A stretch of DNA of 37,505 nt, taken from Bacteroidales bacterium. Lineage in GTDB: Bacteria; Bacteroidota; Bacteroidia; Bacteroidales; F082. Below the pieces are notes generated by a model, which had not been told where the DNA came from, searched no databases, and saw only the letters and a program-made list of their open reading frames with translations. The stretch covers positions 1 through 37,505 of the forward strand of contig JAEETH010000030.1 in the NCBI GenBank assembly GCA_016290215.1, read 5' to 3'. Shown here piece after piece: positions 10,675-28,365 of this stretch (position 1 is the first letter of the stretch; each line of letters starts with the position of its first letter). A program made the position numbers and the translations under genes.

Positions 10675-10740
10675 TAGGTCGGCAAAATAGTTTTTTCTGC
10701 AATAGATTGAAAATGCAAGCGATAAATTCCCAATGTTTTG

Positions 10741-10748
10741 TATTTTTG
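10741..10748 (+). promoter_or_regulatory. -7 box of the TonB receptor operon
   Basis: TATTTTTG, a match to TAnnTTTG, 21 nt upstream of the ATG at 10770. This distance supports that start over an in-frame ATG at 10707, which lies upstream of the box. Confidence 0.6.
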
Positions 10749-10769
10749 CACAAATTTATTCCATTGAAA

Positions 10770-13115: not shown

Positions 13116-14020
13116 TGACTATGAAGAGAGTTGTTGGAATATTGTTGGTCAGTCTTTCCTTGTTGATGGCGACTTCGTGTACCGAAGAAATTATCATCGA
13201 CGTGGAAGATGGCGATCGCATGATAGGAGTTTCAGCAGTACTTACTGATGAGCTGAAGAGCCATGAGGTTGTCCTAAGCTATACGGACGATTTCTACAAC
13301 AATAATGAGGGAATCCGCATGGTGACGGGTGCCACCGTATATGTCACTGATGGCATCGACACGGTTTACTATGCCGAAGAACCTACAAAACCAGGGCATT
13401 ATTTTACAGCTCCTTTCGCTGGCAGAAAGAAGACATTATATCGTTTGTGCATCACCGCTCCCGATATTGAAGGCGAAATGGTGGATCTTTTTGCTGAGAG
13501 TTTTCTACCTGATAATGTGGACCAAATCGATAGTTTGGTGATGAAGCCATTCAATGGGGGTGAGGATACCGTCCCCACTGTATTCTTTGGCGACACCATC
13601 GAATTTCTTTATCCTTATTTCCAAAGCCTGTCGGATTCCACCATCGTTTATATGCCGATGATCTCGAGAAACGATACCTTGTTGACCGACACCTTGAATC
13701 AGCGTATGGTCATCCCAATGGCTGGTTATGCGGGCTTTTATGTGAATGGCCTCGAAATGCAAATGGCTAACAAGGAGATTCCCATATATTATCAGAGAAA
13801 GTCCGAGCTGAGAAATGGCGATGTGTTTCGAGCCGACTTGTATAGCATACAGTTGGATTACATCTTTTTTTACTATAGTCTGATGTTGTCGAATGGAAGT
13901 AATCCTATGTTGGGAGCACCTGCCAATGTGTCGACCAACATCCAGCCTTCGGGTTTGGGCGTGGGATGGTTCATGACGGCTTCCGTCGTTTCGGCAGAGA
14001 CCGTATTTGATGACAGATAA
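13115..14020 (+). CDS. DUF4249 lipoprotein, copy 1
   Basis: A 301-residue lipoprotein of the DUF4249 family. The signal ends in LMATSC (Cys22), followed directly by TEEIIIDVEDG, the typical acidic beta strand at the start of this family. The pattern HEVVLSYTDDFY, GATVYVTDG, TVYYAEEPTKPGHY and AGRKKTLYRL is shared with the next gene. It is presumably an outer-membrane accessory to the TonB receptor, in the way SusD-type proteins serve SusC, but function is not established. The ATG overlaps the receptor's TGA; a second ATG two codons later is an alternative start. Confidence 0.88.
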   Translation: MTMKRVVGILLVSLSLLMATSCTEEIIIDVEDGDRMIGVSAVLTDELKSHEVVLSYTDDFYNNNEGIRMVTGATVYVTDGIDTVYYAEEPTKPGHYFTAPFAGRKKTLYRLCITAPDIEGEMVDLFAESFLPDNVDQIDSLVMKPFNGGEDTVPTVFFGDTIEFLYPYFQSLSDSTIVYMPMISRNDTLLTDTLNQRMVIPMAGYAGFYVNGLEMQMANKEIPIYYQRKSELRNGDVFRADLYSIQLDYIFFYYSLMLSNGSNPMLGAPANVSTNIQPSGLGVGWFMTASVVSAETVFDDR

Positions 14021-14046
14021 TGAAGTTCGTATAAAATCAATAGGTT

Positions 14047-14967
14047 ATGAATATACTAAAAAGTCTTTTTCGTTCGTTGCCGTTCCTTTGTTTCATGCCG
14101 ATATGTGCTTGTACTGAGGAAGTGGTTTTGGATATGCCCGAAGGCGAGAAAAGGCCTGTCGTTGAAGGCTATTTGACTAATGAGGTTAAACGCCATGAGG
14201 TGATTCTCAGCTATTCGGCACCTTGCTATTCTAGCGAAAGGGAGATGATACCGGGTGCAGTGGTGTATGCGGTTGGTGGTGGTGACACCATCTATTATTA
14301 TGAACAACCAGATAAACCAGGTCATTACTTGACCGATTCGGTGGCAGGCCGCAAAAGTCGAAGGTATCACCTTGAGGTGCGTGTGGCAGAAAATACCATG
14401 TATAGCTCTCCTCTTCGCATGTATGCCGAAACGTATATGCCCAACAATGCAGCAGGTATCGATTCAGTAGGATTATTGCCCTTGCTGAATAAGGAAGGTA
14501 TCCCTTTCGTTGACGAGAAGGCTGCTGTTTGTGTTTGCCCGTATTTTCAGACACTTTCGAATCCTGATATTGTCTATAATGTGGAATTGTATCTGAATGG
14601 ATCCCGGTTCAGAAATAGACCATCGAAGTTATTACAGCTTTTCCAGATGCAAGGCTATGCTGGCTATTATTTCAACGGCCCCGAGATGTTGAAAGACAAT
14701 GCTCCGATTCCTGTTGGCATCATGAACAAATCCTATTTACATGAAGGTGATGTGGTAAAGGTTAAGCTGTATAGCATTTCGAAAGATTATTTATACTATT
14801 TGATGGGACAAAAGCTGGCTGTCGGTGTTAATCCTATCATGGGTGCCTTCCCTGCTATTACAACGAACATATTTTCAAATTGCATTGCCATCGGTTGGTT
14901 TGCGACCACATCGATGATTGAGGGTGAGTGCGTTTACCATGAGTCTATGTTCGAATCTGAAGAATGA
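14047..14967 (+). CDS. DUF4249 lipoprotein, copy 2
   Basis: A 306-residue paralogue of the preceding gene, 26 nt downstream. The signal peptide ends around CAC; Cys22 aligns with the lipidated Cys of copy 1 (both are followed by TEE). Shared landmarks: HEVILSYSAP, GAVVYAVGGGDTIYYYEQPDKPGHYL, AGRKSRRYHL, AGYYFNG and a C-terminal GWFATTS. The two copies have clearly diverged, so the duplication is old. It is the last gene of the receptor operon, with a terminator 22 nt after its stop. Confidence 0.87.
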   Translation: MNILKSLFRSLPFLCFMPICACTEEVVLDMPEGEKRPVVEGYLTNEVKRHEVILSYSAPCYSSEREMIPGAVVYAVGGGDTIYYYEQPDKPGHYLTDSVAGRKSRRYHLEVRVAENTMYSSPLRMYAETYMPNNAAGIDSVGLLPLLNKEGIPFVDEKAAVCVCPYFQTLSNPDIVYNVELYLNGSRFRNRPSKLLQLFQMQGYAGYYFNGPEMLKDNAPIPVGIMNKSYLHEGDVVKVKLYSISKDYLYYLMGQKLAVGVNPIMGAFPAITTNIFSNCIAIGWFATTSMIEGECVYHESMFESEE

Positions 14968-15046: not shown

Positions 15047-18000
15047 TTATCTCACGACTACTTTTTCCATGTGGACTTGTGTGCCATTGGTGAGGCGGAT
15101 GAAGTAAATGCCCTTGGTTAGGCCTTCGATGCTGATTTGCTCAGAACCTTGTGCTTTACCAGTGACCACCATTTGTCCCATTCCATTGAACATTTCATAG
15201 GTAAACTCACTGTTGCCACCTTCGATGTAAAGGATGTTGCTGGCAGGATTGGGATAGAGTGAGAAGTGGTCGACGTTTTCTTCAATGACGGTGAGGTTGA
15301 CGATGACGCACTCGGGAATTGAAGAGCCATCAGCATATTCTGCAACGACACAATAGGTGTAATTGACACTCAGTGAAGTCTCTTCCGAATAAGTAGGTTC
15401 GGTGGTCTGGCCGATTTCGATGCCATTGCGCTGGATGGTGTAGGCGATGGCGCCTTCCGGAGCATCCCAAGTCAGAACGACTACGGAACCATCAACATCG
15501 GCCACGAGGTTCTCGACAGGGGCAAAGTTCGTGATGGGAGTGTCGCCACCGGTGCAGTTGCAGTCAAATTCATGCAACACGCCACCTCCTGACAAGCTAC
15601 CTGATGTATAAATGGTCTCACCTGATTCGTATTTTACCGTGAATGAGCATTCGTATGAGTATTGACCAGTAATCCAGGTCAGGACGACATGGACGCCATT
15701 GCCAATTTCTATGGTTTGCGTTTCTTGTTGATTGGGTTGGACACCACTTTCGGGAGCATCTAAATAGAGTTCCAAATCAGGTGAACCATCGCTGAACGAG
15801 AGTTTAAGTATGTTGCCATTCCAGCCGTCACCCCAGCTGTCATGCATCTCAACGATGACAGCGCATGAGTTTTTCAACACGATGCTGCCTTCAGCCGTCA
15901 AGTCGCCGTCAGCTTGCATGGTAAAGCCAATGGTGATTTGCTCCGTTGTCGGGCATTCGGCATCGATGGTGATTTGGAACGGGCAAGAGGCAATGCCTTC
16001 TGGGTCGATGGTGCCAATTTCATAACTCTCGTTGAGGATATGCACGTATGGGTTGTCGCAGGTGATGTTGGCAATGGCATTGGTGGCCATGTAGTGACCG
16101 TTGTTTTGGAATTTGGCAACCATGGTCAAGGATTCACTGGGAACAAAGCTTCCAGCCCAGTCGGTTCCAACATAGTTGAGGTTGGCTTGTCCAGCCGTGA
16201 CAAAGGTCTTTCCCGTCCAAGAGTGTGAGTTGTCGGCCATGGTGACGTCGATTTGGAATCGGGTACCGTCCTCAACGCCTTGTGAAACGATGAAACTAAA
16301 GGCATTTTCGAGGGTGATGGTTTCATCGGCACCCAATACATCGAATGTGGCGGTGCTTTGGGTGAAGTTCAGGCTTTCATTGGCGCATGACACGGTGACG
16401 TTGACAGGACCATTGGTGGGGTCAACACCCACATTCTTGAAGGTCATGCTCATGTCAGTTTCCACATTGACGGGAGCGAAGTTAGGAACGCTATTGGTCA
16501 AAGTGATGTAAGGACCTTCAGCAGGAAGGACCTCTAACGGCAGGATTTCAGTGACTTTGTTGTAGCCCATCACTGTCAGAGTGGCGGTACCCACATTACT
16601 CAATGGGGCAAAGTGTAAGGTGCAAGTGCCGTCCAAAATATAGCCGGAGCTAATCACTTCGCCGTCCATCATCATCGTGGCAATGCCGAAAGCGGTGTTT
16701 TCGGCGTCCACTTCCATTTCGGTCATGCCTAACATCAAAGCTGAGGGTGAGCAAGTGACATTCATCGGGACAGGATTGTCGGTGCGGACCATCACCGTTG
16801 GGTCGCCGAAGAGAATCCAAGTGTCGTGAGTGTCGTATCCTTGGGAACCACTCATGTCGATGACATACAGGTTGCCGTTCACCGATGCGCCACCTAAGGT
16901 ATGGTTGTATTTGTCGTTGTTGTGCCATTCGGTCAGGATGTTGACCATCTCGTCTTGACCGTACATAGGCGGAATCCAAGGCTGGTTCATCCAGGAGAAC
17001 ATTCCGCCAATAGCGCCAGTGGGGACACCGGTCGAGTTATTGCTGGCACGCATCCAAGCCTCAGCGAAACATTCACCATTTGCACCGCCATAGTTGAATT
17101 TACCCGTCAAACAAGCCACTGACCAGTTGATGGGCCACATGTAGTCGTTTGTCAAAGCGTTGACATGGCTGTTGCTGTAATTGGCGACACCCCAGCTGGT
17201 CTCGGAGCCATGGTTGCAGTAGTTGATGATGCTCACGCCTGCGTTGATGGCAGCGCTGATGCTTGAAGCGCTGGCAGAACCACCACCGTGAAGCTCAGTG
17301 ACATGTTCATAGGTGTAGTGCTCCAGTGTGTCGCGGATGAGGTCGATGTGTTGGTAGTCATCTTCACCGTAATGTCCAGAACCGGCGCCGATAGCACCGA
17401 TGCCAAGGCCTTTGTTGACCCAAGTAAGGTTTTCTGGCATGTCGCGCTCATAGTAAAGCACCTTGTTGACTTGGTTGGCCAAATGGGCATTGTTTTGCAC
17501 TGAGAAACGGCCAATGATTACTTCCTCATAATGGTCGGTGCCTTCAACTCGGCCAAACCAGTTGTCGGAATATTCGGAGCTATAACCAGAAGTGAAGGGG
17601 TGCGGGGTGATGTGTTCATAGTCACCAACAAACAATACAAATTGGAGGTTGTGGGCCGGGTCGTTATAGATGTTAGTGATGTAGTTCTTGATAGCGTTTT
17701 GCTCGTTACCGCCAACTTCGCTTACGCTGACTATTGTGGTGGGACGTCCTGACTGGTTTTTCCAGTCGACGAATTCTTGCATGCCATCCATAAACTGGTC
17801 GGCGCAAATGACCAACATCTCGCCACGGTCATTAACAAAGTTGTACTTGCTGGCGTTTTCACCGAAGTTGATGAAACGGCGGCTATAGGCCTGTCTCATT
17901 TCGGGATCCAACTTGCCAGAACGCTTGCGGTTGAGTTTCGGGTTCTCGCCGTTGTCGCTCACCTTGCGCATGGCAATGGTCATGTTGTGGTAAACACGAA

Positions 18001-18556
18001 GCGTCTTGGTCGTCGGGTTGTAGGTGAAAGGCTTCACCATGATGTTTTGGCCACGGAAGTCACGAAGGATGTAAGGAGCATCCAATGAGGCTTGTGCTTC
18101 AGGATAGAAAGCATCCTGGCTGTACATGGGGCCGTAGGTGTAAGGCACGTTTTTCGGGTCGACTTGACGGCTGAGGTTGCCTTTTGAAGGGGCAATCTCA
18201 ACGTTCTGGTAGTCCGTGAACTCGCTCTTGAGGATGCTGACTTCCATTTCAGCCAAATCACCGATGATGGCCGGGACAGGGAACTGAGGAAGGTCGGGAG
18301 CACCGGCTGTGAGCATCGGGGCCATCTTGGGAACGGACACGATTTGCTGTGTACCGTTCGGAGTGCTAACACTGGTCAAATAGAAACCACCTATCGAGAA
18401 GTCGACAACGACTTGCTTTTCGCTGCTCGAAATCAAGGTGACTTCAGGACCTGCGGGTTCCGCATTCACGGAACTCTTGCTGATACTAGTCCATTGTTGG
18501 GCAAATGTCATGGTTGACAAAGCCGCAAATAGGAGGGAAAAAAGTAGTTTTTTCAT
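15047..18556 (-). CDS. Arg-gingipain-like C25 protease with T9SS domain
   Basis: A 1169-residue secreted cysteine protease closely resembling RgpA/RgpB of Porphyromonas gingivalis. Order: signal peptide (1-19), prosegment (to about 227, ending in AYSRR), C25 catalytic domain (about 245-600), Ig-like/CARDB repeats, a DSWGDGWNGN domain with cysteines, an FN3 domain (about 1010-1090) and a type A T9SS sorting domain (SLYPNPASN...EKVVVR). Catalytic His449 is in NHGSETSWG and Cys482 in SVACLTG; the 33-residue gap equals that of RgpB (H211/C244, from memory). Asp400 in EDDYQH aligns with RgpB Asp163, the S1 residue for arginine. Conserved MYGQDEM and LFGDPTVMVR segments follow. The sorting domain excludes PorU. 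Arg specificity is inference. Confidence 0.93.
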   Translation of the reverse strand: MKKLLFSLLFAALSTMTFAQQWTSISKSSVNAEPAGPEVTLISSSEKQVVVDFSIGGFYLTSVSTPNGTQQIVSVPKMAPMLTAGAPDLPQFPVPAIIGDLAEMEVSILKSEFTDYQNVEIAPSKGNLSRQVDPKNVPYTYGPMYSQDAFYPEAQASLDAPYILRDFRGQNIMVKPFTYNPTTKTLRVYHNMTIAMRKVSDNGENPKLNRKRSGKLDPEMRQAYSRRFINFGENASKYNFVNDRGEMLVICADQFMDGMQEFVDWKNQSGRPTTIVSVSEVGGNEQNAIKNYITNIYNDPAHNLQFVLFVGDYEHITPHPFTSGYSSEYSDNWFGRVEGTDHYEEVIIGRFSVQNNAHLANQVNKVLYYERDMPENLTWVNKGLGIGAIGAGSGHYGEDDYQHIDLIRDTLEHYTYEHVTELHGGGSASASSISAAINAGVSIINYCNHGSETSWGVANYSNSHVNALTNDYMWPINWSVACLTGKFNYGGANGECFAEAWMRASNNSTGVPTGAIGGMFSWMNQPWIPPMYGQDEMVNILTEWHNNDKYNHTLGGASVNGNLYVIDMSGSQGYDTHDTWILFGDPTVMVRTDNPVPMNVTCSPSALMLGMTEMEVDAENTAFGIATMMMDGEVISSGYILDGTCTLHFAPLSNVGTATLTVMGYNKVTEILPLEVLPAEGPYITLTNSVPNFAPVNVETDMSMTFKNVGVDPTNGPVNVTVSCANESLNFTQSTATFDVLGADETITLENAFSFIVSQGVEDGTRFQIDVTMADNSHSWTGKTFVTAGQANLNYVGTDWAGSFVPSESLTMVAKFQNNGHYMATNAIANITCDNPYVHILNESYEIGTIDPEGIASCPFQITIDAECPTTEQITIGFTMQADGDLTAEGSIVLKNSCAVIVEMHDSWGDGWNGNILKLSFSDGSPDLELYLDAPESGVQPNQQETQTIEIGNGVHVVLTWITGQYSYECSFTVKYESGETIYTSGSLSGGGVLHEFDCNCTGGDTPITNFAPVENLVADVDGSVVVLTWDAPEGAIAYTIQRNGIEIGQTTEPTYSEETSLSVNYTYCVVAEYADGSSIPECVIVNLTVIEENVDHFSLYPNPASNILYIEGGNSEFTYEMFNGMGQMVVTGKAQGSEQISIEGLTKGIYFIRLTNGTQVHMEKVVVR

Positions 18557-18597
18557 GTGTTATGAATTAAAAATTAATGAAAACCATTGAAAGAGTG

Positions 18598-18605
18598 CAA
18601 AGATA
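18598..18605 (-). promoter_or_regulatory. -7 box of the Arg-gingipain-like gene
   Basis: TATCTTTG on the minus strand (match to TAnnTTTG), 41 nt before the ATG. The leader between them is AT-rich. Confidence 0.6.
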
Positions 18606-18674
18606 CGAATCTTTTTTCTTGTGGAACGCTTTTTGGTTGAGAAATATTATCAACTCTAAATGTTTATTTTTGTG

Positions 18675-18682
18675 TACTTTTG
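18675..18682 (+). promoter_or_regulatory. -7 box of the TerB-DnaJ gene
   Basis: TACTTTTG, 23 nt before the ATG at 18706. A second match, TATTTTTG, lies 9 nt upstream (18666-18673). The region is divergent with the protease promoter at 18598. Confidence 0.55.
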
Positions 18683-18705
18683 CCGACTGAAAAAATAGAA
18701 CTGTT

Positions 18706-19440
18706 ATGGGATTTTTCTTGAAACTTTTTCTTACGGGATTGGGCTGGGCATTTGGCGGCCCCTTAGGCGGCATCATAGGTTATGCCATCGGCGCACTTTT
18801 TTCTGGTAATGGACCGCGCGTGATTCGTTCGGAAGTGACGGATACTTTTGGAAATACAGAGGAAAAGCGTGATTTCAACGTGACATTGTTGGTGCTTTCC
18901 GCTGCCGTGATGAAGGCCGACGGCAACGTGAAACGCTCGGAACTCGATTATGTGAAACGCTTTTTCTTGCAAAACTTTGGGCAAAATCGCGCTGAGAGTT
19001 ATATCAAGATGCTGCGCGAGATTTTGGAGAAGGACTATAATCTTTACGAAGTCAGTCAGCAGGTGGGTCGTTACATGGATTATTCCTCCCGCCTTCAACT
19101 GCTCCATTATCTTTTCGGCATTGCCAATGCTGATGGTGCGATTTCGCAAGAGGAACTGGGCGTCGTCAACACGATTTCCGATTATATGGGCATCACTAAC
19201 AGCGATTTCCTATCGGTGAAGGCTATGTTTATTAAGGAAACCGACAGCGCCTATAAGATTCTTGGTATTGATGCATCAGCTTCCGACGAGGAAGTGAAGA
19301 GAGCCTACCGCGAGATGGCGAAGAAAAACCATCCGGATTTGGTCAGCAACCTTGGCGAGGAGGTAAGGCAAGCGGCTGAGAAAAAGTTCCAAGAAGTCAA
19401 CGCTGCTTACGAGGCCATCAAGAAACAACGCGGATTATGA
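18706..19440 (+). CDS. TerB/DnaJ co-chaperone (DjlA-like)
   Basis: A 244-residue protein. A hydrophobic Gly-rich N-terminus (about 1-33, [20 protein letters not shown]) probably inserts in the membrane. A TerB-like helical domain follows (about 55-165: [20 protein letters not shown] and [15 protein letters not shown], paired acidic motifs). The C-terminal J domain (about 182-241) has the HPD motif at 209-211. J domains stimulate DnaK ATPase; the layout is that of DjlA. It is encoded on the opposite strand within the gingipain locus, with its own promoter and a shared terminator. Whether it serves protease export is unknown. Confidence 0.92.
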
Positions 19441-19447
19441 TTGTTTC

Positions 19448-19527
19448 TCACGCAGAATTCGCTGAAAACGCAGAAATTAATAGCTGTATCATGCGACTTT
19501 TCATATAGTTCAGCGTATTCTGCGTGA
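19448..19527. repeat. Long inverted repeat, CGCAGA/CGCTGA type
   Basis: The 19-nt arms TCACGCAGAATTCGCTGAA (19448-19466) and TTCAGCGTATTCTGCGTGA (19509-19527) pair with one mismatch around a 42-nt loop containing a second CGCAGAA. It lies directly after the DnaJ gene stop and 6 nt before a terminator. Sequences of repeated CGCAGA/CGCTGA type are, from memory, common intergenic repeats in Bacteroidota. Confidence 0.6.
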
Positions 19528-19532
19528 TAAAA

Positions 19533-19559
19533 AAAGGTCGCCCGATGTGGACGACCTTT
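19533..19559. terminator. Bidirectional terminator between DnaJ gene and Kgp-like gene A
   Basis: AAAGGTCG-c-CC-gatgt-GG-a-CGACCTTT with an A-run before it and a T-rich tail after it. It ends both the rightward DnaJ transcript and the leftward protease transcript (stop at 19582). Confidence 0.8.
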
Positions 19560-19581
19560 CTTATTGCATTTCTGCGAGTGG

Positions 19582-22500
19582 TTATTCAACCACGACTTTT
19601 TCGATGCGCACTTGCGTGCCAGAGGTGAGGCGCAGGAAATAGACTCCCTTGGCCATGCTGCTGACGCTGATTTGGGTGTTGCCCGTGGCTTTGCCTTCGG
19701 CAACCTTCTGTCCCATGCCGTTGAACATCTCATAGCTGTATTCGGCATCGCCTCCGTTGACAAACAGAGTGTTGTTGACGGGGTTAGGATAGATGGCGAA
19801 TTCGACTTCGTTTTCGTTGATGTCGTCGAAGAACTCGATAAGGACGCACGAAGGAACTGAGAGGTTGCTGCTCATTTCTGCGACGACGCAGTAGGTGTAA
19901 ACCATCTCGGTGGAAACCATGTCGGTGTAGGTGTGTTCAGTGGTTTGGCCGATTTTAACGCCGTTACGATAGACATGGAAGACCAACTCGTCATTCGTGG
20001 TCGTATTCCAGTGGAGAGTGACCTCGTTGCCATTCACTTCGCCAGTAAGATCGGTTACAGGATCCACACTGGTTGATGAACCACCGCCGCAGTTGCAGTC
20101 GAACTGGTATGACCATGAAGCGCTGAGGTTGCTGGCTTGGGTGATGACGGTGCCGTCTTCGTAAGAAACGGTGAATGAGCATTCGTAGGCGTAACTGCCA
20201 TTGACCCAGCTCAAGGTAACGTGAACATTAATTCCGATTTCGAGGATGTATTCAGCGGCGTTGCCGTTTTCGATGGTCAGGTCTTGAGTGGGCGAGCCGT
20301 CGTCAAAAGCAACACGGAGCTTGTTGCCATTCCAACCGTCGCCCCATGAGTCGACGAGCGAGAACACAACGTTACAAGTGTTCTTGAGGTTGGCGCTGCC
20401 TTCGGCATTGAGGTTGCCGTCGGCATTCAAGGTAAAGGTCAGAGGCAGTTGCTCTGTGCTGGGGCAGGAGGCGTCGATGGTGACATCGAACACGCAGGTG
20501 GCGATGCCGTTAGGCTCGATGGTGCCTACCTGGTAGGTGTCGTTTACGAAGCTGACATTTTGGCTCGTAGAGGCAATGGTGGCGATGGCGTTGGTGGCCA
20601 TGTAGTGACCAGTATTCTTGAATGTAGCGGTGACGGTGACGGTTTCACCAGGAGTGTAGCCGCCCGCTTGGGCATCGACAAATTCTAAGATGGCTTCACC
20701 CGCAGTGATGTAGGCTTTACCTTCCCAAGTGTCGCTACCGCAAACACAAGTAACGTTGATGGTGAATCTGGTGCCGTCGGCCACGCCTTGGGCGATACGA
20801 TAGCTGAAGCCGTTCAAGGTAACGGTGGCATCAGCGGCAAGAGCTCCAAATTGGTTGCTGCCGCTAATGATGGTGAGGTTCGGGTTTTCGCAGCTCAGCG
20901 TGACATTGGTGGTGCCAGTGGTGGCCTGTGTACCAACGTTCTTGAAGGTGATGCTGAGGTTGGCTTCGTCGCCGACATGGGCGTTTTCAGGAGTATAGCT
21001 GTCAACAGAAACGTAAGCACCTTCCATGGCAGCAGCGGGGATGGTTGCAATATAAGGTTGACGTTGCGGATGCGTCACCACAATCTTAACTTCACCGCCA
21101 GAAGTGATGGGGGTAATCGGGATGTCGGCCACGCCTTCTTCTCCGATTTCACCAGCGCCGTAGAGGACGCCGTCCTTCGAAATGCCAACGTATGAACCTG
21201 GGTCGGCTGTGATAGTGTAAGAGTCAAGTCCGATGGGCATGACAGCCATGTGTGAAACGGTGTTCGCGATAGGATTGGTGTGGTAGGGGCAAACGGAACC
21301 GTCGCCGAGGACATGGTAGGCCTCCCAGTAATATTGGTCGGTTGCAGTGCTACTGCTTTGATAACCATTGGCGTGAGCGTATGCCACAGCGACGTTACCT
21401 ATAAACGGAATGGCTGAAATGCTGTTGAACTCATCAGTGAAGGTGGCGTCGTAAACACCCATCGTCGTGTTCTCGTAAAGAGGCATCTGGTTCATGGTGT
21501 TAGTGGCACCAACGCCAAAGTAGTAGTCTTCATACCAGTAGGTTTCAACGGGTGAACCGATGTAGGCGTAAGCGCCCTTCTTTTGGGCGATAATCATGGC
21601 TTCGCCCAAGCTCTTGCTTGAATAGCCCCAGTTGGCGGCCAAGCAGCAGTTACCCATGGCCAGGAAGTATTTGTTAAGGTTGGTCAACGAATTGACGTTG
21701 CTGGCAGAGAAGTTGGGGTCGGACCATTCGGTGTCGCCACCGTGGGCGGTGTAGTTCACAAAACCGACGCCCGTGCTCAAATGTTGATAGCAGCCCGTGT
21801 AAGGCTGTTGTAAGTAGCTATACACATTGTCGAAGCCGTGTTCAGCATTGTAATAGTAGTTTGTGGCATATTGAATGGTAGGCTTGCCGATTCTCGGATT
21901 CCAAGTGCCGTCCCAACCTGCAATGAGGAGCACATTGTTCAAGTAGCTCGGATCGGGCATGGTGTATTGCTCATACATCATGGATTTTTCAATGACATTT
22001 TGGAATTCCTGGACGGTTTCGCAGGTGAAACGGCTGTGGAACATATCCGGGAAGTAATCGCTGGCACCACCTGCCACGGCGTAGTAATAAAGGTCGGTCA
22101 CTTTATTGGTTGCTGCGCCCATTTGTGATTGGGGAACTCTGTTGTTGTCACCGACGATGATAAGGAAGGTAGGAGTTTGTCCTTCAGCCAGGCCTTGGTT
22201 GTATTTGTCGACGATGAAGCTCTTGATGGCAGCGGCGCTTGTGCCAATCTCATCTGTGTAGTTGACATCCATGTAGAAACCTTTTTCGGTCTTCCAGGTA
22301 AGCCAAGGCTCCATGGCTTCTTCAAACATACGGTTGGCAATGACCAAAACCTTGACAGGAACGGCCCAGAGGTCGGGGTGCTCGTCGTAAGTATCGGAAA
22401 TTGCTTTCTCGTTGAACAAGGTCGAATAAACCGTTTTGAAATAAGGGCTGTAGGTGTTCACCAAGGTCTTTTCAGTCAGGGCGAGGTCGGCACCTTTGAA

Positions 22501-23100
22501 CGACACTTCCAATTCAATGTTGTTGTAAACGCGGATGGTGTTTGCTGCGGCATTGTATCTCAAGGTGTTGAGTTGCAGTGCTCCGAGCTGGACGCCACGC
22601 ATGGTTCCCAAAACTGAAACCTCGGCAATCGGACGGTCCTCGTTGTAGCCTCTTGCTGAATAGGCAGCTTCGTTATAGGCAAACTTGGGATTGTTGTCGC
22701 TCTTGCTCACCGAAGGTTGATGAGGATAGAGTTTTGCAATGCCGTAGTCAGCAAGATTGTATTCTTCAACGGTGTAGTGCTTGACGGTCACCACGGGGGT
22801 GGCACCGAAAGGAACGGCGATAAGCTTGCGGGTAACAAGCACCTCGGGCTCGCCAATGTTGCCAGCGGCGATGGAGTTGCCCATGTTAAGGATGGAGAAA
22901 ACACCCTTTTCGGTGTTCATCTCTTGGCTTTCAATGGAGCTGTAAGAGAAAGATGCAGAGAAACCGTCGAGCGTGACGTTCTTGCATTCTTGTGTTGCCT
23001 TGGCAGCGTTCAAGTCGATACGGCCTTGGGCCATCGCATGTGTGCCAAATAGCAGTCCTGCAAAGAGGAGTACTAAGGTAAATAAAGCGTTTCTTTTCAT
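19582..23100 (-). CDS. Lys-gingipain-like C25 protease A with T9SS domain
   Basis: A 1172-residue homologue of Kgp from P. gingivalis. Signal peptide (1-24, AMAQ), prosegment to about 232, catalytic domain (about 245-640), then the same C-terminal series as its neighbours: two Ig/CARDB-like repeats (NTGHYMATNAIA), the DSWGDGWNGN domain ending FDCNC, FN3, and a T9SS sorting domain (AIYPNPVNN...EKVVVE). Catalytic Asp397 (AGWD), His453 (YTAHGGDTEW) and Cys486 (MGNCC) keep the exact spacing of the Kgp triad; Asp525 in YWYEDYY corresponds to the Kgp S1 Asp516 that selects lysine (numbering from memory). YWEAYHVLGDGSV is also Kgp-like. The prosegment junction is Lys (NEKAISDTYD), where protease B has Arg. 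Confidence 0.93.
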   Translation of the reverse strand: MKRNALFTLVLLFAGLLFGTHAMAQGRIDLNAAKATQECKNVTLDGFSASFSYSSIESQEMNTEKGVFSILNMGNSIAAGNIGEPEVLVTRKLIAVPFGATPVVTVKHYTVEEYNLADYGIAKLYPHQPSVSKSDNNPKFAYNEAAYSARGYNEDRPIAEVSVLGTMRGVQLGALQLNTLRYNAAANTIRVYNNIELEVSFKGADLALTEKTLVNTYSPYFKTVYSTLFNEKAISDTYDEHPDLWAVPVKVLVIANRMFEEAMEPWLTWKTEKGFYMDVNYTDEIGTSAAAIKSFIVDKYNQGLAEGQTPTFLIIVGDNNRVPQSQMGAATNKVTDLYYYAVAGGASDYFPDMFHSRFTCETVQEFQNVIEKSMMYEQYTMPDPSYLNNVLLIAGWDGTWNPRIGKPTIQYATNYYYNAEHGFDNVYSYLQQPYTGCYQHLSTGVGFVNYTAHGGDTEWSDPNFSASNVNSLTNLNKYFLAMGNCCLAANWGYSSKSLGEAMIIAQKKGAYAYIGSPVETYWYEDYYFGVGATNTMNQMPLYENTTMGVYDATFTDEFNSISAIPFIGNVAVAYAHANGYQSSSTATDQYYWEAYHVLGDGSVCPYHTNPIANTVSHMAVMPIGLDSYTITADPGSYVGISKDGVLYGAGEIGEEGVADIPITPITSGGEVKIVVTHPQRQPYIATIPAAAMEGAYVSVDSYTPENAHVGDEANLSITFKNVGTQATTGTTNVTLSCENPNLTIISGSNQFGALAADATVTLNGFSYRIAQGVADGTRFTINVTCVCGSDTWEGKAYITAGEAILEFVDAQAGGYTPGETVTVTATFKNTGHYMATNAIATIASTSQNVSFVNDTYQVGTIEPNGIATCVFDVTIDASCPSTEQLPLTFTLNADGNLNAEGSANLKNTCNVVFSLVDSWGDGWNGNKLRVAFDDGSPTQDLTIENGNAAEYILEIGINVHVTLSWVNGSYAYECSFTVSYEDGTVITQASNLSASWSYQFDCNCGGGSSTSVDPVTDLTGEVNGNEVTLHWNTTTNDELVFHVYRNGVKIGQTTEHTYTDMVSTEMVYTYCVVAEMSSNLSVPSCVLIEFFDDINENEVEFAIYPNPVNNTLFVNGGDAEYSYEMFNGMGQKVAEGKATGNTQISVSSMAKGVYFLRLTSGTQVRIEKVVVE

Positions 23101-23158
23101 TTGAATGAAATTTGTTATTGAAATTATTGTTGGATTATTTCCATAATTAATGGAGCGG

Positions 23159-23166
23159 CAAAAATA
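23159..23166 (-). promoter_or_regulatory. -7 box of Kgp-like gene A
   Basis: TATTTTTG on the minus strand, 58 nt before the ATG. It shows that gene A has its own promoter, independent of the S41/Kgp-like B unit upstream. Confidence 0.6.
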
Positions 23167-23241
23167 GGGAATTTTTCCGAAAAATACAGGCTATTAATCG
23201 GAAAAATGTTCCACAAAAAGAAGAAAAATACGTGACGAAGT

Positions 23242-26200
23242 TTATTCGACAACGACTTTGACCACTCGTGCTTGCATTCCTGACGTAATGTGCAGGAAAT
23301 AAATGCCTTTGGCTATGCCTTCAACATGGATTTGCGCCATACCATGGGCACCGCCTTTGGCCACCGCCTGACCAACATTATTAAATAGGATAAAGTTGAA
23401 ATCAGTGTCTTCGATAATGACATTCAGTGAGTTGGACGTGGGGTTGGGATAGACCGCAAAGGTCCCTGAGCCTGTCGAAGGGACGTTTTCTTCCAAGCCG
23501 TCAAAGAATTCCATATTCACGCATTCGGGGTAAGAGATACCTTCATCATATTTGGCAACCACGCAGTAAGTGTATGTCATCTCCGTACCGACTTCGTCAG
23601 TGAAAGTGGTTTCGGTGGTCTCGCCTAATTGGATTCCGTTCCGATAGACGATGAAGCCGATGGGATTGGATGCAGTTTCCCAGTCGAGGATGATATGGTA
23701 GCCTTCAACGGTGGCAGTCAAGTTCTCAACGGGGCTGAAGTTGCTGGTGCTGAATTGACAGTCGCAATCAAATTCGTAGAGCAGCCCTTCTTGCGGGTTT
23801 TGGCCATGTTGGTAAATGATGTCGCCATTCTCGTAGCGCACCACGAAACTCACTTCTCCATCCCATTCGCCTACAGTCCACAAAAGGCTAACATGCACAT
23901 GGTTTCCAACTTCGATGGCGAAAGAGGCGTAGTTGCCGCTCTCGATGAATAGGCGTTCGGAAGGTGTGCCATCGTCAAAGGTGACGTCTAAGTAGGCGTT
24001 GTTCCAGCCGTCGCCGTAGGTGTCGCTGAGTTCAAAGATGACGTTGCAGGCGTTACGCAACCTGCCGTTGCCTTCGGCGGTAAGGCCATTGTCGGCGTTG
24101 AGTGTGAAGTTGAGCGGAAGGATTTCCGACTCAGGACAGTCAGGGCTAATGATGACATTGAACACGCAAACAGCCTCGCCTTCAGGGTCGATGGTGCCGA
24201 TTTCAACGGTTTCGCTCTCAAAGGTGATGTATTCGCTTATGCTGGCGATGTTTGCCATGGCGTTGGTGGCACGATAATGACCTTTATTAATAAAATGGGC
24301 CACGACGCTCACGGTTTCGCCAGGGACGAATCCTCCATCCCATTCCATGCTTTCATATTGTAGTTTGGCTTCCCATGCCGTCAGCACGGTTTTGCCTTCC
24401 CAAACGTTGTCACCACAAGTAGCAGTGCTATGGAGGGTGAACACGGCGCGGTCGTCCACACCCTCGGCGATGCTGTAGCTGAAGTTGTTGATGGTGACGC
24501 TTTCCTCGGGTGCGAGGCTCTCGAAGGTGGCCGTGCCGTTGAGGATGGTGAGTTCGGGTGCGTCGCAAGTCAAGGTGACGGTCGTCGTGCCGCCAATAGC
24601 TTCGGTGCCGATGTTCTTGAAGGTGATGCTCAACGGATTCTCTTCACCAACATGCGGGTTGTGGGGCGTGTAGCTGTCGATGGCGATGAAGGGTCCTTCG
24701 AGGACGGCGGCAGGGATGTTGGCAATGTATGGAATCTTGTCGAGGCCAGTGACGCAAATGGTCACCTCGCCGCTCGTATTAACGGGTTCCAAATCAAGGT
24801 TGATGACGCCGCTCTCATCGACGAGGCCTGCGCCGTGAAGCTCGCCGTCTTTGCTGACGGCCACATACGAGCCAGGCAAGGCACTGATTTCAAAGCTGTT
24901 TGCTCCGATGGGGAAATCATCGTCGTGACTGACCACGTTTTCAGTTGGTTGTACGCGGAAAGGCATGATGGAACCATCGCCAAGGGTGTGGTAAGCTTGC
25001 CAATAGTAAGTGTTGACGGCCTCACCGGGATTATGGGCATAACACACGGCAAGGTTGCCGATAAAAGGCAGAGATGCAACGGTGTTGAACCCATTGTTGT
25101 CCCAAACAGCATCGTAAACGCCCATCGATGACTCCTCGTATGTGGGCATTTGCCCGAAAATGTTGGTGGCTCCGACGGCAAAATAGTAGTCTTCATACCA
25201 GTAAGTGCTAGGGCAGGAGCCGATGTAGGCATATGCGGCGGCTTGGTTGGTGCGAATCATGGCTTCACCGAAACAGGTACTGTTGATGCCCCAGTCGGCG
25301 GCGCTGCAGCAGTTGCCTATTGCGAGGAAAGGCTTGCCGAAGTTGGTCAAATTGGGGATGTCGTTGTTGTCGAGGTTAGGCTCGCCCCAACCTTGGTTGT
25401 AGCCGTGAGCGGTATAGTTTGCAAAACCGACGCCCGTGTTGAGGCTGGCGTAGGCGTCTTCGTAGGGCCGACCAAGGAAGTAGTTTACCTCGTTGTAGCC
25501 ATGCTCGGCGTTATAGTAGTAGTTCATGCCGTATTGGATGGTCGGTACACCGATGTAGTCGCACCAATAATCATCCCAGCCAGCCACGAGAAGTACATTG
25601 TTTAAATAGGACGGGTCGGGAAACTCGTAGCGTTCGTATAGCAGGCTCTTGGCGATGATGTTTTGCATCTGTTCAACGGTTTCGGCACACATTCGGCTGT
25701 GGTAAATGTCAGGGAAATCGTCGTTGTCAACGCTCATGTAATACAAGTCGGTGACGCACTCGGTTTCGCTGCCGATGGCACTGGCTTCCACTTGGTTCTT
25801 GTCGCCGAAAATGATGACAAAAGTAGGAGCGTCTTGCGCATACTTGCCTTGGATGAAACTGCGGATGGCCGAGGCAGTGTTGCCGATTTGGTCGGTATAG
25901 TTCACGTCCATGTAGAAACCTTTGGTGGTTTTCCACGCAATCCATTCCTGCATCGACTCCTCAAATATGCGGTCGGCGATGACGAGCATCTTCACAGGGG
26001 CTTGCCACAGGTCGGGGTGCTGGTCGTACACGTCGTCACGCCAGTTGAACATCTGCTTGTAAATGGGGGCAAAATAGGGGCTGAAGGTGCGGGCGAACTC
26101 GTTGTAGGCTGCGGTCTTGTCGTATTCGTTGTAGTTGACTTTCAGCTCGATGTCGTTATAAACCACGATGCTGCCTTTGGCAGGATTGTAAGCCACTGGG

Positions 26201-26736
26201 TTCACGGTCAGCGAGCCGATTTGGATGCCACGCATCGTGCCGAGAATCTCGAAATCCACAAGGTTACGGGCACTATAGTCCTTGCTGGCGTAGGCTTTTT
26301 CGTTATAGGCAAACTTGATGTCCTCGGGCTTTTGGTCTTTCCTGACCGATGGCTGTTGAGGCATGAGTCGGTTGATATTGAAATCGCTCAACTTATATTC
26401 GGTTGTTGTGTAGCTGACGACTTCCGCAGTGACGTTTTGGGCACCGTATGGAACGGCTATCAGCTGGTGCGCAGCAGGAAGTGAAGGCTCGCCGATGTTG
26501 CCAGAAGGATAGGTGTCTTCCATGACGATGCTGGAAAACGTACCTTTTTCAGTTTGTACTTCTTTAGAAATCAGATTATTGAAAGAGAAATTAGCCGTAA
26601 AGCCGTTGTCATTCACGTTGACGCATTGCTGTACGGAAGCGGTCTTCCCGAAATCAATGCGCCCTTGGGCAAAGGCTTGTGTACCGATGAGCAAAACAAT
26701 AGCTGCTATGAGTAAACTCGTCCTTGTCATTTTCAT
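23242..26736 (-). CDS. Lys-gingipain-like C25 protease B with T9SS domain
   Basis: A 1164-residue paralogue of protease A, with signal peptide, prosegment, Kgp-type catalytic domain, Ig repeats, a DTYGDGWNN variant of the DSWGDGWN domain, FN3 and sorting domain (AVYPNPTSN...KVVVE). Catalytic residues fall at Asp388, His444 and Cys477 with S1 Asp516, the same numbers I recall for P. gingivalis Kgp, which implies a prosegment of matching length. The prosegment ends NWR233 followed by DDVYDQHPDLW, resembling the Kgp activation site (Arg, then DVYTDHGDLY). After the catalytic His, the SET of Kgp is replaced by YNQ. A PSTGSG insertion encoded by a palindrome sits before the sorting domain. It is 27 nt after the S41 gene and probably co-transcribed with it. 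Confidence 0.93.
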   Translation of the reverse strand: MKMTRTSLLIAAIVLLIGTQAFAQGRIDFGKTASVQQCVNVNDNGFTANFSFNNLISKEVQTEKGTFSSIVMEDTYPSGNIGEPSLPAAHQLIAVPYGAQNVTAEVVSYTTTEYKLSDFNINRLMPQQPSVRKDQKPEDIKFAYNEKAYASKDYSARNLVDFEILGTMRGIQIGSLTVNPVAYNPAKGSIVVYNDIELKVNYNEYDKTAAYNEFARTFSPYFAPIYKQMFNWRDDVYDQHPDLWQAPVKMLVIADRIFEESMQEWIAWKTTKGFYMDVNYTDQIGNTASAIRSFIQGKYAQDAPTFVIIFGDKNQVEASAIGSETECVTDLYYMSVDNDDFPDIYHSRMCAETVEQMQNIIAKSLLYERYEFPDPSYLNNVLLVAGWDDYWCDYIGVPTIQYGMNYYYNAEHGYNEVNYFLGRPYEDAYASLNTGVGFANYTAHGYNQGWGEPNLDNNDIPNLTNFGKPFLAIGNCCSAADWGINSTCFGEAMIRTNQAAAYAYIGSCPSTYWYEDYYFAVGATNIFGQMPTYEESSMGVYDAVWDNNGFNTVASLPFIGNLAVCYAHNPGEAVNTYYWQAYHTLGDGSIMPFRVQPTENVVSHDDDFPIGANSFEISALPGSYVAVSKDGELHGAGLVDESGVINLDLEPVNTSGEVTICVTGLDKIPYIANIPAAVLEGPFIAIDSYTPHNPHVGEENPLSITFKNIGTEAIGGTTTVTLTCDAPELTILNGTATFESLAPEESVTINNFSYSIAEGVDDRAVFTLHSTATCGDNVWEGKTVLTAWEAKLQYESMEWDGGFVPGETVSVVAHFINKGHYRATNAMANIASISEYITFESETVEIGTIDPEGEAVCVFNVIISPDCPESEILPLNFTLNADNGLTAEGNGRLRNACNVIFELSDTYGDGWNNAYLDVTFDDGTPSERLFIESGNYASFAIEVGNHVHVSLLWTVGEWDGEVSFVVRYENGDIIYQHGQNPQEGLLYEFDCDCQFSTSNFSPVENLTATVEGYHIILDWETASNPIGFIVYRNGIQLGETTETTFTDEVGTEMTYTYCVVAKYDEGISYPECVNMEFFDGLEENVPSTGSGTFAVYPNPTSNSLNVIIEDTDFNFILFNNVGQAVAKGGAHGMAQIHVEGIAKGIYFLHITSGMQARVVKVVVE
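23462..23484. repeat. REP-like palindrome inside protease B coding sequence
   Basis: GTCCCT and AGGGAC flank an 11-nt centre (GAGCCTGTCGA). The CCCTTCGACAGGCTCAGGG type of sequence is, from memory, a very widespread small repeat in bacterial genomes. Here it encodes VPSTGSG in the linker before the sorting domain. Protease A (ENEVEFAIYPNP) and the Rgp-like protein (ENVDHFSLYPNP) lack it and are five residues shorter at this point, so it looks like a 15-nt in-frame insertion. Confidence 0.55.
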
Positions 26737-26763: not shown

Positions 26764-28365
26764 TTATTTGTTGCTCAATATTTTGTTGAAAGCTTTGTTG
26801 TCGTTGAGGATTTCGATTGCTTTCTGAACCCCAGGGTCGGATGAAGCCATCACCTGGTAGTATTGTTGTGTCTCCCAAACATTGCGTGCTATCAAGGCTT
26901 TGATCTGCAAAAGCAAGAACTTTTCTGAACGATTGAATTGCTCGTCATTCCATTCCACCTTGGCGTCTTCAGCGGCTTTTTTCAGCCCATTAACGAGGTC
27001 CTGACCGACAACGAAATCCTTGTTATAGTTATCGAAATCGCCATATTGGGCCTTGATTTCGTCACGATGTTTGAGGGCGTAATCGGTGGTGAAGCGGTTC
27101 AAGGCACCTTTGCGGACGAGGTTGGTGTAGAGCTTGCTATTGTAGGCCGTGTCGACAGGAATGAAGAGGTCGGGCATGATGCCACCACCGCCGTAAACGG
27201 TGCGACCGCCGTCGGTCTTAAACTTCAGCGAGTCGGGGAAGTGGATGCTGTCGGCATGGTAGTATTCGCCATGTTTGAGGCGTTTTTCCATCTCCTTGGC
27301 ATAGTCTTCGGCACCCTTTTCGTAAGGCCGTTGGATGCAACGTCCCGAAGGCGTGTGGTAGCGCGAGGTGGTCAGGCGGATTTGTGCGCCGTCGGGCAGG
27401 TTGAAAGGTCTTTGAACCAGACCTTTGCCAAAGGAACGGCGACCGATGACGACACCTCGGTCGTGGTCTTGGATGGCACCTGAAAGAATCTCACTGGCCG
27501 AGGCTGAGCCTTCATCGATGAGGACGACGAGTTTGCCCGTGGTGTAAAGCCCCGCAGCAGTGCTTCTCCATTCCTGACGGGGTGAGTGGATGCCTTCGGT
27601 GAAGACGATGAGCTTGCCTTCGTCGATGAATTGATCCACCAATTCGATGGCGGTGTTAAGGTAGCCGCCCGTGTTGCCGCGCAGGTCGAAGATGAGCGAC
27701 TCCATGCCTTGGCTTTGCAGCTTGGCGAAGGCTTCCTTGAACTCTTGTGTCGATTCTTGTGCGAAACGGTCGAGTTTGATATAGCCGATATGGTTGTCGA
27801 GCATATAAGAAGCGTTGATGCTGTTCAACGGAATCTTGTCGCGGGTGATTTCAAAGTCAATAAGTTCAGGGTCACTGCCGCGCTTCACGCCCACGGTGAC
27901 CTTGGTGCCTTTCTTGCCGCGCAAGCGTTTCTGCACATATTCATTGTCGATTTTTTTGCCGAAGGCATCTTCGCCATCGATTTTGATGATCTGGTCACCG
28001 GTCATGATGCCGACCTTCTCGGAGGGGCCTCCCGCCGTGGGGCTGATGACGGTGATGGTGTCGCGGATGAGCTGGTAGGTCACGCCGATGCCCTCGAAGC
28101 TACCCACGAGGGGCTCGTTGGCCTTCTCCACGTCCTTTTTGGAAATGTAGGCCGAGTGCGGGTCGAGTTCTTTCAGTGCCGCGATGATGGCGTCTTCCGT
28201 CACCTTGTCTATATTGGCCGTGTCGACGTAAAAGTTCTCGATGAGATAAAGCGTCGTAGCCAGTTTTTGGGAGTTCATCTGCCCTTTTGATTGGGGCTGT
28301 TGGGCTGTTGCCGCCATTGCAATGAAACAGGCAATAGCCAAAAAAAACAATTTCAGTGATTTCAT
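26764..28365 (-). CDS. S41 C-terminal processing protease (CtpA/Prc-like)
   Basis: A 533-residue periplasmic serine protease. Signal peptide (to about residue 22, ATAQQ), helical N-terminal region, PDZ domain (about 85-175: GIGVTYQLIRD...GIMTGDQIIKIDGEDAFG), S41 catalytic core (about 190-360) and a C-terminal helical extension. Ser289 in GSASASE and Lys314 in SFGKG form the dyad, with the 25-residue spacing of Prc. It usually trims C-termini of periplasmic proteins. It is first in an operon with Kgp-like protease B (27-nt gap), which may be casual or may reflect a shared role in secreted protein turnover. Its start is supported by a TACCTTTG box 25 nt upstream. Confidence 0.95.
   Translation of the reverse strand: MKSLKLFFLAIACFIAMAATAQQPQSKGQMNSQKLATTLYLIENFYVDTANIDKVTEDAIIAALKELDPHSAYISKKDVEKANEPLVGSFEGIGVTYQLIRDTITVISPTAGGPSEKVGIMTGDQIIKIDGEDAFGKKIDNEYVQKRLRGKKGTKVTVGVKRGSDPELIDFEITRDKIPLNSINASYMLDNHIGYIKLDRFAQESTQEFKEAFAKLQSQGMESLIFDLRGNTGGYLNTAIELVDQFIDEGKLIVFTEGIHSPRQEWRSTAAGLYTTGKLVVLIDEGSASASEILSGAIQDHDRGVVIGRRSFGKGLVQRPFNLPDGAQIRLTTSRYHTPSGRCIQRPYEKGAEDYAKEMEKRLKHGEYYHADSIHFPDSLKFKTDGGRTVYGGGGIMPDLFIPVDTAYNSKLYTNLVRKGALNRFTTDYALKHRDEIKAQYGDFDNYNKDFVVGQDLVNGLKKAAEDAKVEWNDEQFNRSEKFLLLQIKALIARNVWETQQYYQVMASSDPGVQKAIEILNDNKAFNKILSNK

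What the first reader, a model, noticed from the sequence alone, without database searches (positions are those of the whole stretch)
15047..26736. Arg- and Lys-gingipain homologues together in one T9SS protease locus
One Rgp-like and two Kgp-like C25 proteases lie within 12 kb. Catalytic spacing is exact: His449-Cys482 in the Rgp-like protein (33 residues, as in RgpB); Asp397/His453/Cys486 and Asp388/His444/Cys477 in the two Kgp-like ones. The S1 acidic residues that give Arg or Lys preference in P. gingivalis are also kept (Asp400; Asp525; Asp516). A paired trypsin-like Arg/Lys system outside typical Porphyromonas would be notable, especially if the host is a gut or environmental commensal. 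Residue numbers of the reference enzymes are from memory.
Basis: partly seen in the sequence, partly recalled or inferred. Interest (0 to 1): 0.85.

Follow-up and report, generated by a model that had tools for sequence, protein, structure and literature searches.

The report
Paired Arg- and Lys-gingipain relatives, gut Bacteroidales
A bacterium related to herbivore-gut species carries, close together, relatives of the two gum-disease proteases that cut after arginine and after lysine, and each inactive precursor carries the very residue its protease should cut, a built-in label that also points to sister proteases predicted to cut after acidic residues.

Summary
Three complete C25 zymogens lie at 15047-26736: one Rgp-like, two Kgp-like. 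Each has propeptide, catalytic, Ig-like and T9SS-sorting domains; catalytic and S1 residues are as stated. The genome has a T9SS.

They are not isolated. The genome has 23 C25 matches: 4 Rgp-like, 8 Kgp-like, 2 PorU, 9 others. Both types occur in 60 of 60 sampled genomes of the genus and widely in the order. Of 49 neighbouring pairs found in the order sample, all 49 share a strand and in 46 the Kgp-like gene comes first.

Specificity has a second readout. The propeptide residue that plugs S1 in proRgpB (Arg126) is Arg in 75 of 75 Rgp-class and Lys in 129 of 131 Kgp-class proteins, 2 gaps. A third clade, with Arg replacing the Thr near the catalytic His and Asn replacing Kgp Asp516, has Asp/Glu there in 59 of 66: a predicted acidic-P1 gingipain. 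A fourth has Leu/Ile/Val/Tyr. Nothing was assayed. The window proteins are new members of a known kind; the sister clades and the gene pairing are the new part.

The parts
15047..18556 (-). Rgp-like C25 protease zymogen, 1169 aa
19582..23100 (-). Kgp-like C25 protease zymogen 1 (K1), 1172 aa
23242..26736 (-). Kgp-like C25 protease zymogen 2 (K2), 1164 aa; 53% identical to K1
17966..18451 (-). Propeptide_C25 of the Rgp-like protein (aa 36-197)
18167..18169 (-). Arg130, aligned with index 107 of the RgpB prodomain chain 4ief_A; this is Arg126 in precursor numbering (offset inferred), the propeptide residue that fills S1
   Evidence: role of Arg126 from PMC4357240 passages
22702..22704 (-). Lys133 of K1, aligned with index 115 of the Kgp prodomain chain 5mun_A (Lys129 in precursor numbering, recalled)
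26338..26340 (-). Lys133 of K2, same position
16787..17818 (-). Peptidase_C25 domain, Rgp-like (His449, Cys482)
17357..17359 (-). Asp400 = RgpB Asp163, S1 acid
21295..22347 (-). Peptidase_C25 domain, K1 (Asp397, His453, Cys486)
21526..21528 (-). Asp525 = Kgp Asp516, S1 acid
24964..25989 (-). Peptidase_C25 domain, K2 (Asp388, His444, Cys477)
25189..25191 (-). Asp516 of K2 = Kgp Asp516, S1 acid
15053..15259 (-). T9SS type A C-terminal sorting domain, Rgp-like
19588..19794 (-). T9SS type A C-terminal sorting domain, K1
23248..23454 (-). T9SS type A C-terminal sorting domain, K2
26764..28365 (-). S41 C-terminal processing peptidase with PDZ domain, same strand, 27 bases upstream of K2; functional link not tested

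Best explanation
The locus encodes three secreted C25 protease zymogens of the gingipain type: one arginine-specific and two lysine-specific. Shown here by sequence: domain order, catalytic His/Cys, S1 acids, propeptide plug residue, sorting domain and a T9SS in the genome. Inferred: each precursor goes through the Sec system and then the T9SS. On the way it is held inactive by its propeptide, whose loop puts the protease's own preferred residue (Arg130, or Lys133 in both Kgp-like proteins) into S1. PorU removes the sorting domain; cleavage at the plug residue and later loss of the propeptide release the active enzyme at the cell surface or outside. Together the enzymes cut extracellular protein after Arg and Lys, as trypsin does, most likely to feed the cell on dietary, microbial or host protein in a gut. 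The same self-label marks two sister clades in this genome, predicted to cut after Asp/Glu (7 genes) and, less surely, after large hydrophobic residues (2 genes).
Against: No activity, expression or secretion was measured. S1 geometry was not inspected. The position aligned with Kgp Asp388 (third catalytic residue) is a gap in the alignment, and Ile389 lies opposite RgpB residue 152, so no acid is seen there in the window Rgp-like protein. Each class is one clade, so the plug/S1 match rests on few evolutionary events. Second-site processing at the propeptide/catalytic junction gave no clean signal. The gut role is inference from the named relatives' sources only.
Confidence: 0.88

Rival explanations
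1. The proteins have the gingipain fold but a broader or different P1 preference, the S1 acids being kept for structural reasons.
For: Evidence is sequence only; distance to RgpB is large (36% identity in the structural alignment).
Against: The plug residue in the propeptide, a separate domain, is Arg or Lys just as the S1 acid predicts in every row of the two classes that has a residue there, while its neighbours vary.
Confidence: 0.08
2. They are housekeeping C25 proteins (PorU-type sortases) rather than cargo proteases.
For: PorU is also C25; the Rgp-like protein matches the PorU model weakly (37.8 bits).
Against: The PorU model's cut-off is 420 bits, and the genome's two PorU genes score 1170 and 1023 bits elsewhere, on C90.
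Confidence: 0.01
3. The two sister clades are not differently specific: the Asp/Glu and Leu/Ile/Val residues at the plug position are chance features of their propeptides.
For: Each clade is one origin; 7 of 66 third-clade members lack Asp/Glu at the column; by entropy the column is only 36th of 207 in the third clade and 85th of 190 in the hydrophobic one.
Against: In the third clade the column is the most acidic of 207 propeptide columns (0.89, next 0.68), and the S1 changes go the same way: Arg for Thr two before the catalytic His, Asn for Asp516 and Ser for Trp513, each in 66 of 66.
Confidence: 0.2

Closest known systems
Gingipain R (RgpB/RgpA), Porphyromonas gingivalis, MEROPS C25
   Same: Propeptide with Arg at the S1 plug position, C25 fold, His/Cys spacing, Asp163, Ig-like domain, T9SS sorting domain
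   Different: Host is another Bacteroidales, probably from a gut; encoded with Kgp-like genes; no acid seen at the position of the third catalytic residue in the window protein; activity untested
Gingipain K (Kgp), P. gingivalis
   Same: Equivalents of Asp388, His444, Cys477, Thr442, Asn475, Trp513 and Asp516; propeptide with Lys plug; Ig-like and sorting domains
   Different: No hemagglutinin/adhesin domain was listed for the window proteins at E<=0.001; two copies in tandem upstream of an Rgp-like gene; P. gingivalis rgp and kgp genes are separate (recalled)
PorU, T9SS sortase (C25)
   Same: C25 fold
   Different: Sorts cargo; the Rgp-like protein scores far under its model and the Kgp-like ones are not listed
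Legumain and caspases (clan CD, Asn/Asp at P1)
   Same: Clan CD fold and, for caspases, acid P1 (table in PMC4357240)
   Different: Other families; scanned members of the predicted acidic-P1 clade (3 of 7 in this genome) have C25 propeptide, C25 domain and T9SS sorting domain

Membership tests
Gingipain R type | C25 catalytic domain with His/Cys 33 apart | tested here: met
   His449/Cys482; PF01364 177.7 bits
Gingipain R type | S1 Asp at RgpB 163 and Trp at 284 | tested here: met
   Printed alignment to 1cvr; Asp in 74 of 75 class rows, 1 gap; Trp in 73 of 75, 2 gaps
Gingipain R type | Propeptide with Arg at the S1 plug position | tested here: met
   Arg130 in the aligned position; its insertion into S1 was not seen directly
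Gingipain R type | Glu152, third catalytic residue (recalled) | tested here: inconclusive
   Ile389 opposite residue 152; gap at the Kgp-388 column, where 2 of 4 own-genome Rgp-like proteins have Glu; region poorly aligned
Gingipain R type | Strict Arg cleavage | not testable with these tools
   needs assay
Gingipain K type | Asp388, His444, Cys477 and S1 Thr442, Asp516 | tested here: met
Gingipain K type | Propeptide with Lys at the plug position | tested here: met
   Lys133 in both
Gingipain K type | Hemagglutinin/adhesin domains of Kgp | tested here: not met
   None listed in the Pfam scan at E<=0.001
Gingipain K type | Strict Lys cleavage | not testable with these tools
   needs assay
T9SS cargo | C-terminal sorting domain | tested here: met
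   PF18962 and TIGR04183 in all three
T9SS cargo | T9SS genes in the genome | tested here: met
   PorU x2, Sov, PorP/K/L/M/N
PorU sortase | NF033707 above cut-off | tested here: not met
   37.8 bits against 420 for the Rgp-like protein; not listed for the other two

The most novel reading that the evidence does not exclude
C25 zymogens carry a written label of their own P1 specificity: the residue 7 positions after an anchoring proline in the propeptide. Read across Bacteroidales it shows that gingipains are one part of a larger set with at least four specificities (Arg, Lys, Asp/Glu, and large hydrophobic) which single gut bacteria hold together as an extracellular digestive kit. The acidic-P1 gingipain, with the S1 charge reversed by Arg two residues before the catalytic His and Asn in place of Asp516, would be an undescribed protease specificity in this family.
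Probability: 0.7. Interest if true: 0.78.

Novelty: new variant of a known kind. Interest (0 to 1): 0.6.

Why it matters
Passages of papers seen here treat gingipain genes as confined, within Porphyromonas, to P. gingivalis and its nearest kin (PMC4700951, PMC10394638, PMC8861167). Finding both types, often next to each other and mostly in one gene order, in many other Bacteroidales families recasts them as a common digestive pair of the order rather than an invention of a gum pathogen, and reopens how P. gingivalis came by them. The propeptide label gives a cheap rule for predicting P1 specificity from sequence across C25 enzymes, and the acidic-P1 prediction can be tested with one recombinant protein and a few chromogenic peptides.

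Tried and rejected

A first count of gene neighbours measured pairs with the Rgp-like gene first over too long a distance and so showed none; the recount with true gaps finds 3 such pairs, all three in one family code (f102), and replaces it.

Rows dropped before counts: own-genome duplicate loci L001-L008 and L076-L087 were left out, 32 PorU and 6 duplicates removed, leaving 303. That set is made of search hits and hand-picked mid-scoring places, not a random sample; 1 Rgp-class and 2 Kgp-class rows lack the catalytic His column.

Not in print: claims rest on searches in an open-licence library only. The structural papers on the RgpB and Kgp zymogens were not read; the id of one was tried and is not held.

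Full report

Secretion. The genome has two PorU genes side by side (1170 and 1023 bits), Sov/SprA, and PorP, PorK, PorL, PorM and PorN in one cluster.

The rest of the genome. PF01364 gives 23 matches. By phmmer scores and alignment of the catalytic domains they fall into 4 Rgp-like, 8 Kgp-like, 7 of a third class (T), 2 of a fourth (F) and 2 PorU. Rgp- and Kgp-like genes share three regions: this window, C39 (L069) and C48 (L065). Five of the nine T and F proteins were scanned; all five carry Propeptide_C25, Peptidase_C25 and Por_Secre_tail.

Distribution. In 60 sampled genomes of the genus, this one included, Kgp-like matches occur in 60 of 60, Rgp-like in 60 of 60 and T-like in 55 of 60, all at E<=1e-60. 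In an even sample of 393 genomes of the order: Kgp-like query 186 (E<=1e-60), Rgp-like query 165 (E<=1e-40), T profile 103 (E<=1e-60); F profile 71 of 344. A query may also pick up neighbouring C25 classes at these cut-offs, so the order counts are upper bounds for strict class membership. One scan of named genomes gave 55 loci, nearly all filed as Bacteroidales: 19 titles name a ruminant or horse host or gut site, 14 more bear RUG names (rumen genomes, recalled), and two Candidatus Limimorpha species are among them; others include an Odoribacter sp., a Prevotellaceae MAG and a Zixiibacteriota MAG. I infer a herbivore-gut host for the window; its own record is not named.

Gene order. Of the loci, 54 hold a C25 gene. 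In 29 of these 54, and in the window, the next C25 gene after a Kgp-like gene on the same strand is Rgp-like, 2 to 125 bases on in 23 of the 29; one locus (L059) has Rgp before Kgp, one (L054) reads K-R-K, 4 have only Kgp-like genes in tandem, and 20 show a single Kgp-like gene, some on stretches that end there (e.g. L026, L053). From 150 Kgp-query and 137 Rgp-query matches that I copied, 67 genomes have both. 49 pairs in 44 of these genomes lie under 6 kb apart; all 49 share a strand, and the Kgp-like gene comes first in 46 (41 genomes) and the Rgp-like gene in 3 (G137, G237, G384, one family code) (which corrects). The pair is thus a widespread, operon-like arrangement with a strong but not absolute order. 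In P. gingivalis the genes are apart (recalled).

The propeptide label. In proRgpB an inhibitory loop puts Arg126 into S1, where it binds Asp163, and the first processing cleavage is at Arg126 (PMC4357240, passages seen). In one search Arg130 of the Rgp-like protein aligns with index 107 of the prodomain chain 4ief_A, which is Arg126 if that chain begins with five extra residues before residue 25 (inferred). In one search Lys133 of K1 aligns with index 115 of 5mun_A, the Kgp equivalent (Lys129, recalled). I collected 303 non-PorU C25 proteins, classed them by catalytic-domain HMM alone, and aligned propeptide plus catalytic domain. At the plug column: Rgp class Arg 75 of 75; Kgp class Lys 129 of 131, 2 gaps; T class Asp 46 and Glu 13 of 66, the other 7 being Ala 2, Val 2, Asn, Ile, Gly; F class Leu 15, Ile 7, Val 7, Tyr 2 of 31. 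Counting residues from a conserved proline instead, the 7th after it is Arg 73 of 73, Lys 125 of 125, Asp/Glu 58 of 65, and Leu/Ile/Val/Tyr 31 of 31 where the proline is present; 2, 6, 1 and 0 rows lack it. In non-redundant sets the column is invariant in 44 Rgp-class and 61 Kgp-class rows while most neighbours vary. In T it is the most acidic of 207 propeptide columns (0.89, next 0.68), though by entropy only the 36th; in F it is unremarkable (85th of 190). Of the 7 T exceptions, 6 have an Asp or Glu within two residues further on; L074_379, an own-genome protein, has none.

S1 in the classes. Kgp Thr442 (two before the catalytic His) and Asp516 contact the P1 lysine amine (PMC6426963, passages). 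The Asp516 column is Asp in 129 of 131 Kgp-class rows (2 gaps) but Asn in 66 of 66 T rows, where the Thr442 position is Arg in 66 of 66 and the Trp513 column is Ser in 66 of 66. The Asp163 column is Asp in 74 of 75 Rgp-class rows (1 gap). His and Cys are kept in all 66 T and all 31 F rows. So in T the S1 wall loses its acid and gains a base, as the acidic plug predicts. A tree of 67 catalytic domains has each of the four classes as one side of a branch with SH-aLRT 98 to 100; plug states need 5 changes on it, 3 being the least possible. The agreement is therefore between four clades, not between hundreds of independent events.

Mechanism and limits. Shown: sequence features, class distribution, gene order, fold. 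Inferred: export, latency, self-processing, Arg/Lys and Asp/Glu cleavage, nutritional role. Not done: any assay; any look into the pocket. The model of a T protein from an IMG/VR contig (L298) is of middling quality and supports the gingipain fold only.

Literature. Seen as passages: PMC4357240, PMC6426963, PMC4700951 (gingipain genes unique to P. gulae and P. gingivalis among the porphyromonads compared, Kgp only in P. gingivalis), PMC10394638 (Lys-gingipains only in P. gingivalis within the genus), PMC8861167 (gingipain homologues absent in P. asaccharolytica and P. uenonis), PMC6275135 (C25 domains called gingipains in an uncultured oral Bacteroidetes genome, an earlier report outside Porphyromonas), PMC5445135 (PG0410 listed as a hypothetical gingipain-like C25), PMC13271334 (gingipains described as Arg- or Lys-specific). 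Seen in listing only: PMC13366090 (proRgpB inhibitory loop). In the listings I found no account of acidic-P1 C25 peptidases or of the plug residue used as a family-wide specificity label; most subscription papers are not in that library.

Verdict. Observation confirmed; interpretation partly supported. The window proteins are new members of a known kind. The recurrent Kgp-Rgp pair and the predicted further specificities are the new variant.

Noticed in passing
L067, L068, L074 (own genome C39, C22): Seven T-class C25 proteases, four of them on one 16 kb contig (C22), with Arg two before the catalytic His and, in 6 of 7, Asp/Glu at the propeptide plug position.
   Followed up: yes
L073, L075 (own genome C112, C115): Two F-class C25 proteases with Tyr at the plug position, where the 29 others sampled have Leu, Ile or Val.
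   Followed up: partly
L064 (own genome C90): Two PorU sortase genes in tandem, both well above the equivalog cut-off; similar close pairs of high-scoring C25 matches appear in many genomes of the genus.
   Followed up: no
L298 (IMGVR_UViG_3300028797_004779): A T-class protease on a contig filed as viral; from the neighbouring ORFs printed (not searched against families) it may be a misfiled or flanking bacterial contig.
   Followed up: partly
window 15047-18556: No acid is seen at the position of the third catalytic residue in the Rgp-like protein, while 2 of 4 Rgp-like proteins of the genome have Glu there.
   Followed up: partly
L065, L070, L071, L072: Five own-genome Kgp-like proteins are much longer (1687 to 2248 aa) than the window ones; their extra C-terminal parts were not examined.
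   Followed up: no
window 10707-14967: A TonB-dependent receptor followed by two DUF4249 genes on the other strand, reading towards the protease cluster.
   Followed up: no
K1 and K2 junction; Kgp-like proteins of the own genome: The propeptide/catalytic junction often reads N-x-Arg, which an Rgp-like partner could cut, but this is not kept across the order.
   Followed up: partly
L062: A Kgp-class C25 protein on a contig filed as Candidatus Zixiibacteriota, outside Bacteroidota (253 bits).
   Followed up: no
G137, G237, G384 (family code f102): Three genomes of one family have the reversed order, Rgp-like gene before Kgp-like gene.
   Followed up: no
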